54,444 bases of DNA, from contig JAGSHB010000017.1 of NCBI GenBank assembly GCA_023954815.1, forward strand, positions 1-54,444, given 5' to 3'. The DNA is from Myxococcales bacterium (GTDB taxonomy: Bacteria; Myxococcota_A; UBA9042). The translations under genes and the position numbers were made by a program. Positions 9,549 to 10,952 of the stretch are shown piece after piece; the first letter of the stretch is position 1; each line of letters begins with the position of its first letter. The notes below the pieces were generated by a model. That model did not search any database. It saw only the letters and a program-made list of their open reading frames with translations, and was not told the DNA's origin.

Positions 9549-10952
9549 ATGAACAAGCGTACCCTCGCCATCGCCTCCGCAGCCGCCGTGATCGCCGCTG
9601 CAGTGGGCATCGTGACCCTGCGTCAACAAGCGCCGAAGCCTGCTGCCCTTGCGGTCGCTGTGCCTGCGCCGAAGATGCTCGACATGCAGCTCGACAAGGC
9701 CCTCGCCAATCAGATGCAGCTGCTCGACAAGGCCGACAAGCTCTCGCCAGACAAACGGCTGCCATTGCCGGTGGCGCATTCCGCTGGCGCCCACGCTGTC
9801 GCTGCGCAGGACAGGGTCAACACCGCCATTGTCGCCAAAGTTGACGAGAAAGCGAGCGTCGCCTTGTGGTTTTCAGGTAATGAGATCGCCGAGACCGACC
9901 CGTGCGGTTGAGCGCGTAACCCGCTGGGCGGTCTTGCCCGGCGTTCACATTGGATGAAGCAGCGTCGCTCCCGCTTTCGGGGCGCGCTTTCTGTTGACAC
10001 CGGCGGCTGGCTCGTCGCCTCGCCTCGTTTTCACGGCGACAAGAAGCCGAAACTGCAGCTGCGTGCTGAGACGTTTTTCAAATCGTTCGCCGCCATGGGG
10101 TATCACGCCCTCAACATCGGAGAGCACGAGTTGGCGCTGCCACCTGCGCAGCTCAAGAAGCTAGCAAAGCGGTACAAACTCCAGTTAGTCAGCTCGAATA
10201 TTATCGATAAAAAGACCAGAAATCCGGCCTTTCAGCCGGCCGTGCTTAAGACCATCGGTGGCATCAAGTTCGGTATCTTTGGCCTGGTGACCTCGGCTCC
10301 ACAGGCGCGCGGCGATAACTTTGCGGCCTACGGTCTTGAAGTGAATGACCCTGCACGGGCGGCGAGGGCCGCGGTCACGGTACTGCGGAAAAATGGCGCA
10401 CAGGTCATCGTTTGTCTCAGCGCCATGCGGCGGCAGGAGGCCGATTTGGTCACCGACAAGGTCAAAGGCATCGATATTGTCTTGGGCACCACCGGGATGG
10501 AGCTCACGATGCAGCTCGCGACTATGGGCCGCAGCTTCTTCGCGGACACCTACACCAAGGGCAAGTACATCGGCGAGGTGCTGTGGACGCCGGGCGCTGA
10601 GAAGTCCAAGTGGGCGGCTGCGAACCTGAAGGCGACGTTGCAGCAGCAATCGCAGAGTTTGCAGATGCGCGTGACCGACCTCAGCCAGCAACTCACCACG
10701 GCGGGGAAGCCCAACAGCCCCGTACAGTTGACGGCGCAGTCGCGAAAGCTCATGCAGCGGGAGCTGGTGCGCATGCGTGCCAAGTTGCAACGCGTGAAGC
10801 TGGAGCTGGACGGCGATCTGAAGGCTCCCGCGGGAGCTGGTCAGGTTCGTCTGAGCATGCACCCGCTCAATACCGACGTGGAGGACGACAAGCGCGTGCT
10901 CAAGATCGTCGAGCGTTTCAAGAAGAAGTACCCGAGCAAGCCGGGGCACTGA
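9549..10952 (+). CDS. putative selenoprotein: exported UshA-like metallophosphatase fold with Cys-Gly-Sec motif
   Basis: Read through one in-frame TGA (9909-9911, Sec121), this is a single 467-residue protein. Residues 1-24 are a signal/anchor; AGGAG lies 10 bases before the ATG. The fold follows 5'-nucleotidase (UshA-like) proteins in order: SGNEIAETDPCG-U-ARN then PLGGLARR (125-132), SVDTGG (148-153; family DAGD), MGYHALNIGEHEL (183-195; family GNHE), VSSNI, GIKFGIFGLVT and GIDIVLGTTG (family GGH), then a charged helical C-terminus. Several metal ligands are therefore replaced, while Cys119 and Sec121 form a redox-type pair. No stop occurs in the 14 codons between the TGA and the next ATG (9954), and no ribosome site precedes that ATG. 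A SECIS-like hairpin follows the TGA. Alternatives: a nonsense mutation or a sequencing error turning TGC/TGT into TGA. Confidence 0.85.
9909..9943 (+). promoter_or_regulatory. UGA(Sec) codon with bacterial SECIS-like element
   Basis: TGA at 9909-9911 is followed by stem CGCTGGGC (9922-9929), loop GGTCTT (9930-9935) and stem GCCCGGCG (9936-9943). This gives eight pairs including one U-G. Counting the U of UGA as 1, U17 is at 9925, G23 at 9931 and U24 at 9932: the positions known to matter for SelB binding in E. coli fdhF, with GGUC in the same loop register (22-25). The sequence also stays open in frame. Comparison is from memory of the fdhF element. Confidence 0.8.

What the first reader, a model, noticed from the sequence alone, without database searches (positions are those of the whole stretch)
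9549..10952. A selenoprotein split by ordinary gene calling: in-frame UGA inside an UshA-like fold
Two frames (9549-9911 and 9954-10952) are in the same phase, separated by one TGA and 14 sense codons. Neither half is complete alone. The first ends in DPCG and the second lacks a start with a ribosome site. Joined, they give DPCG-U-ARN followed by PLGGLARR. From memory, related deltaproteobacterial proteins show EPCGC with GGLARR here, so Sec would replace the second Cys. The order of motifs matches the 5'-nucleotidase fold, but several metal ligands are changed (VDTGG for DAGD, GTTG for GGH). This suggests a phosphatase fold converted to thiol/selenol chemistry at Cys119/Sec121.
Basis: partly seen in the sequence, partly recalled or inferred. 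Interest (0 to 1): 0.95.

Follow-up and report, generated by a model that had tools for sequence, protein, structure and literature searches.

The report
Haem-less UshA-like selenoprotein with in-frame UGA
One gene in a myxobacterial genome reads a UGA 'stop' as selenocysteine inside a phosphatase-like protein; this protein family was already known to contain selenium, but this is a shorter branch without the cytochrome part, and standard annotation would break the gene in two.

Summary
TGA 9909-9911 is the only stop inside a 467-residue frame (9549-10952). The genome has selA, selB, selD (itself with an in-frame TGA) and tRNA-Sec. Three congeners (54-63% identity) and about 30 more distant homologues carry TGA at exactly the same codon (PCG-U). 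Cys versions are uninterrupted single genes with Cys at 121; two of them lie next to the same upstream gene. A SECIS-type hairpin (9922-9943) follows the TGA: its loop codons GGC-GGT are invariant in 35/35 Sec genes but present in only 5/15 Cys genes, and its stem shows compensatory changes. The gene's real terminator is also TGA, without such a hairpin.

It is not a new kind. The protein belongs with the known UshA-like PCG(U/C) selenoproteins (NCBIfam NF041198; CxU UshA-like of the 2008 GOS survey). It differs by scoring below the NF041198 cut-off, lacking the C-terminal four-haem domain, and having lost the phosphatase metal ligands. In this class all 28 Sec genes read are haem-less; the 18 haem-bearing paralogues read carry Cys. 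Biochemical function is not shown; an exported Cys/Sec redox site on a dead nucleotidase/SoxB fold is most likely.

The parts
9549..10952 (+). Complete selenoprotein gene, 467 residues (UshA-like, haem-less), Sec121; terminator is a second TGA at 10950-10952
   Evidence: one internal TGA only
9533..9548 (+). Ribosome-binding site (AGGAG) and spacer before ATG 9549
   Evidence: sequence
9549..9608 (+). N-terminal hydrophobic helix (signal anchor or signal peptide), residues 1-20
   Evidence: sequence; helix 3-19 in the model; export is inference
9903..9911 (+). Codons for Cys119-Gly120-Sec121 (TGC GGT TGA), the CxU motif
   Evidence: Sec or Cys at 121 in all UshA-like PCG relatives read; Cys119 in all but L046 and L065 (Ser)
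9922..9943 (+). Bacterial-type SECIS hairpin: stem 9922-9929/9936-9943, loop 9930-9935 GGTCTT, loop starts 18 nt after the TGA
9930..10640 (+). Metallophosphatase-like (5'-nucleotidase/SoxB) domain with metal ligands replaced
7782..9407 (-). Divergent conserved neighbour, hydrophobic (membrane) protein without a Pfam match
6336..7685 (-). Glutamate-cysteine ligase family 2 (GCS2), conserved neighbour

Best explanation
A single-gene selenoprotein of Myxococcota (relatives are deposited as uncultured Myxococcales MAGs). UGA 9909-9911 is decoded as Sec121 by SelB and tRNA-Sec, directed by the hairpin just downstream; the UGA at the gene's end lacks such a hairpin and terminates. The product is a probably membrane-anchored, exported protein with the 5'-nucleotidase/SoxB metallophosphatase fold. 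The dimetal ligands are gone, and a Cys119-Gly-Sec121 pair sits directly after the strand and loop that carry the first metal motif in active enzymes. Inferred mechanism: Cys119/Sec121 cycle between selenol/thiol and selenenylsulfide in the old active-site cleft, acting on a sulfur- or selenium-type substrate. In haem-bearing relatives the fused cytochrome exchanges the electrons; here a separate thiol or redox partner must do so. Shown by sequence: Sec coding, homology, ligand loss, absence of haem domain; fold by prediction. Inferred: export, redox cycle, substrate, partner. The confidence given is for the Sec-protein and family reading; for the redox mechanism alone it is about 0.55.
For: Sec machinery in the genome: tRNA-Sec with UCA anticodon, SelB 278 bits, SelA 480 bits, SelD 397 bits with its own in-frame TGA giving GAGUACK (18, 49); tRNA-Sec and SelA also in all 20 family genomes tested. 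TGA in 17 of the 20 best hits, window included, each with exactly one TGA in the matched stretch and at the same codon. Uninterrupted Cys genes with DPCGC at the same position beside the same upstream gene (L029, L031; 27, 43). SECIS: GGC-GGT in 35/35 Sec vs 5/15 Cys genes (Fisher 3e-7; GGT is 17% of Gly codons in these genes; 32); covariation score reached by 0 of 500 shuffles; 2nd strongest hairpin of 1604 TGAs in the window, terminator TGA ranks 600. Family: NF041198 3e-56 (4). Fold: pLDDT 86.5, 5'-nucleotidases and SoxB in Foldseek, E to 1e-17. Ligands replaced. No CxxCH (40, 57).
Against: No proteomics or 75Se data. Hairpin energy alone does not clearly beat synonymous shuffles (mean z -0.33 for Sec, +0.26 for Cys genes, p=0.09). 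The redox role is untested; Cys119 is Ser in one Sec homologue (L046, PSGU), so the Cys/Sec pair is not universal.
Confidence: 0.9

Rival explanations
1. Same selenoprotein, but the fold still works as a hydrolase or sulfur-ester enzyme (SoxB-like) with Sec as nucleophile rather than as a redox centre.
For: SoxB is among the profile and fold matches; SoxB acts on a Cys-bound sulfur substrate (established knowledge). Cys119 can be Ser while Sec stays (L046), so the pair is not strictly needed.
Against: The metal ligands shared by SoxB and UshA are missing at the aligned positions; other relatives carry fused four-haem domains, which points to electron transfer.
Confidence: 0.25
2. UGA is a true stop: pseudogene, sequencing error, or two separate proteins.
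For: Ordinary gene calling gives two frames.
Against: The same TGA in four genomes of the genus and 35 genes overall, conservation on both sides, loop codons fixed only in Sec genes, and single-gene Cys orthologues.
Confidence: 0.02
3. UGA is read as another residue genome-wide (altered code) or by unspecific readthrough.
For: The downstream frame is coding.
Against: The same gene ends in TGA; the residue at 121 alternates with Cys only, not Trp; tRNA-Sec, SelA, SelB and SelD are present.
Confidence: 0.01

Closest known systems
NCBIfam NF041198, UshA-like (seleno)protein PCGU (CxU UshA-like, COG0737; PMC2398784, PMC13188914)
   Same: PCG(U/C) motif followed by GGL(A/x)R, UshA-like domain, profile 18-377 of 519 aligned over residues 98-460, E 3e-56
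   Different: 191 bits against a cut-off of 275; profile positions 378-519 (multihaem cytochrome part) absent
NCBIfam NF049981, UshA-like (seleno)protein family 2 (CxxU)
   Same: Weak similarity over the motif and the domain (53 bits)
   Different: Below cut-off 140; motif there is listed as CxxU, here CxU
SoxB thiosulfohydrolase (TIGR04486; PDB 2wdc, 4uwq)
   Same: Same fold and detectable sequence similarity
   Different: Metal ligands absent here; SoxB has no CxU motif in this place (from general knowledge)
UshA / YfkN 5'-nucleotidases (PDB 1ush, 2z1a, 3gve)
   Same: Fold of the metallophosphatase domain, G-G-L-A-R helix start, S-A-N motif
   Different: Dimetal ligand residues replaced; C-terminal nucleotide-binding domain not matched

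Membership tests
Selenoprotein (bacterial Sec decoding) | In-frame UGA at a position where homologues have Cys | tested here: met
Selenoprotein (bacterial Sec decoding) | selA, selB, selD and tRNA-Sec in the genome | tested here: met
Selenoprotein (bacterial Sec decoding) | SECIS hairpin just downstream, G in the first two loop positions, conserved | tested here: met
   energy test alone inconclusive
Selenoprotein (bacterial Sec decoding) | Selenium in the purified protein | not testable with these tools
   needs 75Se or mass spectrometry
NF041198 UshA_like_PCGU (equivalog) | Score at or above the curated cut-off of 275 bits | tested here: not met
   191.1 bits; none of the 52 class genomes has a match over it
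NF041198 UshA_like_PCGU (equivalog) | PCG(U/C) motif in a UshA-like domain | tested here: met
NF041198 UshA_like_PCGU (equivalog) | C-terminal multihaem region (profile about 378-519) | tested here: not met
   match ends at 377; no CxxCH
NF049981 UshA-like family 2 | Score at or above 140 bits, CxxU motif | tested here: not met
   53.4 bits, CxU
Active metallophosphatase / 5'-nucleotidase | Metal ligands D, N(H), H, H-x-H | tested here: not met
   SAGD>DTGG, GNHE>GEHE, TH>SA, GGHSH>GTTGM against the own-genome nucleotidase L020; first motif (NDxH) compared by eye only
SoxB | TIGR04486 cut-off 550 bits | tested here: not met
   46.9 bits

The most novel reading that the evidence does not exclude
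A separate, haem-free branch of UshA-like selenoproteins, mainly in one class of Myxococcota, in which a dead nucleotidase/SoxB fold became an exported CxU selenenylsulfide redox enzyme, coexisting in single genomes with haem-fused PCGC paralogues and haem-less DCGC paralogues, and escaping the curated selenoprotein model.
Probability: 0.45. Interest if true: 0.5.

Novelty: new variant of a known kind. Interest (0 to 1): 0.38.

Why it matters
The Sec genes of this branch fall under the curated cut-off and would probably be split in annotation, so the selenoproteome of these Myxococcota is likely underestimated. The coexistence in single genomes of Sec haem-less, Cys haem-less and Cys haem-fused paralogues gives a natural comparison to find out what the uncharacterised UshA-like selenoproteins do.

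Tried and rejected
A single-sequence scan of GTDB contigs found nothing (its patterns were too specific); a profile scan with the part after Sec gave 11 named loci. Hairpin energy against synonymous shuffles was inconclusive, probably because the coding constraint (PLGGLARR) already favours a hairpin; codon choice and covariation were decisive instead. Pfam gave no significant match. Rfam found no RNA element in the window. A genome-wide search for the loop motif after TGA gave 5 hits against 2 for the reversed control, so that pattern alone is not a selenoprotein finder. No paper on the function of the family was found. Pseudogene, sequencing error, two proteins and altered code were considered and rejected (see rivals).

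Full report
Observation. TGA at 9909-9911 is the only stop in the frame 9549-10952. ATG 9549 has an AGGAG ribosome site; the internal ATG 9954 has none. The joined product has 467 residues, with C119-G120-U121.

Family. The joined protein hits NCBIfam NF041198 'UshA-like (seleno)protein PCGU' with E 3e-56, 191 bits, below the cut-off of 275. Each half alone is weaker: the second half reaches 145 bits, the first does not hit. The family is known: COG0737 UshA-like with a CxU motif was counted 76 times in the 2008 GOS survey (PMC2398784) and is listed with NF041198 in a 2026 review (PMC13188914).

Sec machinery. The genome (6.44 Mb, 97% complete) holds tRNA-Sec with a TCA anticodon, SelB, SelA and SelD, itself apparently a selenoprotein by its in-frame TGA in the GAGUACK motif. 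All 20 genomes tested of the same family have tRNA-Sec and SelA, including two (G015, G017) whose orthologue has Cys; so the Sec-to-Cys change there was not caused by loss of the machinery.

Homologues. Of 138 related genomes searched, 67 matched at E<=1e-10. The three congeners (54-63% identity) and most family members (34-40%) have exactly one TGA in the matched stretch, always at PCG-U. Uninterrupted genes have Cys at that place: DPCGC in L029 and L031, which have the same upstream gene next door, and DCGC in the paralogue of the own genome (L019). On a quick tree the residue at 121 needs 8 changes between Sec and Cys; several supports are low. Cys119 is Ser in L046 (PSGU) and L065 (ESGC).

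SECIS. The window has an 8-pair stem (9922-9929 with 9936-9943) around the loop GGUCUU, 18 nt after the UGA. Among 35 Sec genes the codons of the two glycines are always GGC-GGT, against 5 of 15 Cys genes (Fisher p 3e-7), although GGT makes up only 17% of glycine codons in these genes. Shared ancestry makes that p-value too optimistic, but the Sec genes span several families and classes. On 33 distinct sequences 88% of cells pair, and 15 cells show changes on both sides, against a mean of 5.6 in shuffles (0 of 500 as high; sliding controls give 31-47% paired). One pair joins the third base of a Leu codon with the first of an Arg/Lys codon: G-C 21 times and U-A 9 times. The folding energy against synonymous shuffles was not decisive. 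In the window this hairpin ranks 2nd of 1604 TGAs by a simple stem score; the gene's terminator TGA ranks 600. So one gene uses UGA both as Sec and as stop.

Fold and active site. AlphaFold (31-sequence alignment) gives mean pLDDT 86.5; Foldseek against the PDB gives 5'-nucleotidases (E 1e-17) and SoxB (E 9e-16), TM-scores 0.42-0.52 by query length; the profile search agrees (2z1a, 1e-29). Against the intact nucleotidase of the same genome (L020) the metal ligand motifs SAGD, GNHE, TH and GGHSH are replaced by DTGG, GEHE, SA and GTTGM. The first metal motif (NDxH) was compared by eye only: HTNDxHG of nucleotidases against HTANVIGELEPCGU of relatives, which puts the CxU motif right after that loop. 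This is inference.

What is different from the known family. The window protein ends where the NF041198 profile enters its multihaem part (377 of 519) and has no CxxCH; the haem-less relatives end the same way, while relatives in other classes of the phylum have PCGU with four CxxCH motifs. Within the class, haem-bearing paralogues also exist, and all 18 that I read have PCGC, not TGA, whereas all 28 Sec genes read there are haem-less. No gene of the class reaches the cut-off. Outside the class one haem-less Sec gene was seen too (L051), so the form is not exclusive to it. The tree groups haem-bearing Cys genes (support 88) and haem-bearing Sec genes (93) each on one side of a branch. I therefore call it a haem-less variant of a known selenoprotein family. 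Whether haem-less Sec forms sit among the 2008 GOS sequences I could not check.

Neighbours. The divergent hydrophobic protein 7782-9407 is kept beside the gene in most relatives, and the glutamate-cysteine ligase 6336-7685 in eight named loci whose DNA reaches that far. A link to thiol metabolism is possible but may be plain synteny.

Verdict. Observation confirmed; Sec interpretation confirmed as far as sequence can do it (about 0.97); redox function inferred (about 0.55). Known kind, new variant.

Noticed in passing
L015 (G000:C154:15282-16220): SelD of this genome is apparently itself a selenoprotein (in-frame TGA in GAG-U-ACK).
   Followed up: partly
L017 (G000:C24), 1393-2988: Paralogue with a KPCGC motif and a C-terminal cytochrome c554-like domain with four CxxCH motifs; Cys instead of Sec.
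   Followed up: partly
L019 (G000:C138), 1084-2613: Second haem-less paralogue with DCGC in place of PCGU; a well-supported branch of such DCGC genes exists in the family.
   Followed up: partly
L020 (G000:C307:15795-16514): An intact 5'-nucleotidase lies about 5 kb from selA; a similar arrangement is seen in G007:C135 and G014:C346.
   Followed up: no
window 6336-7685 and 7782-9407: Glutamate-cysteine ligase (GCS2) and a hydrophobic protein without Pfam match are conserved neighbours of the selenoprotein gene.
   Followed up: partly
window 11656-15786: 1376-residue protein of several similar repeats (LVITE...DSxGEWxE..NPSD) with Asp-rich and Cys-rich spacers, probably a surface protein with lamin-tail-like repeats; conserved in congeners.
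   Followed up: no
L046 and L065: Family members in which the first Cys of the motif is Ser (PSGU, ESGC) while Sec/Cys at the second place is kept.
   Followed up: no
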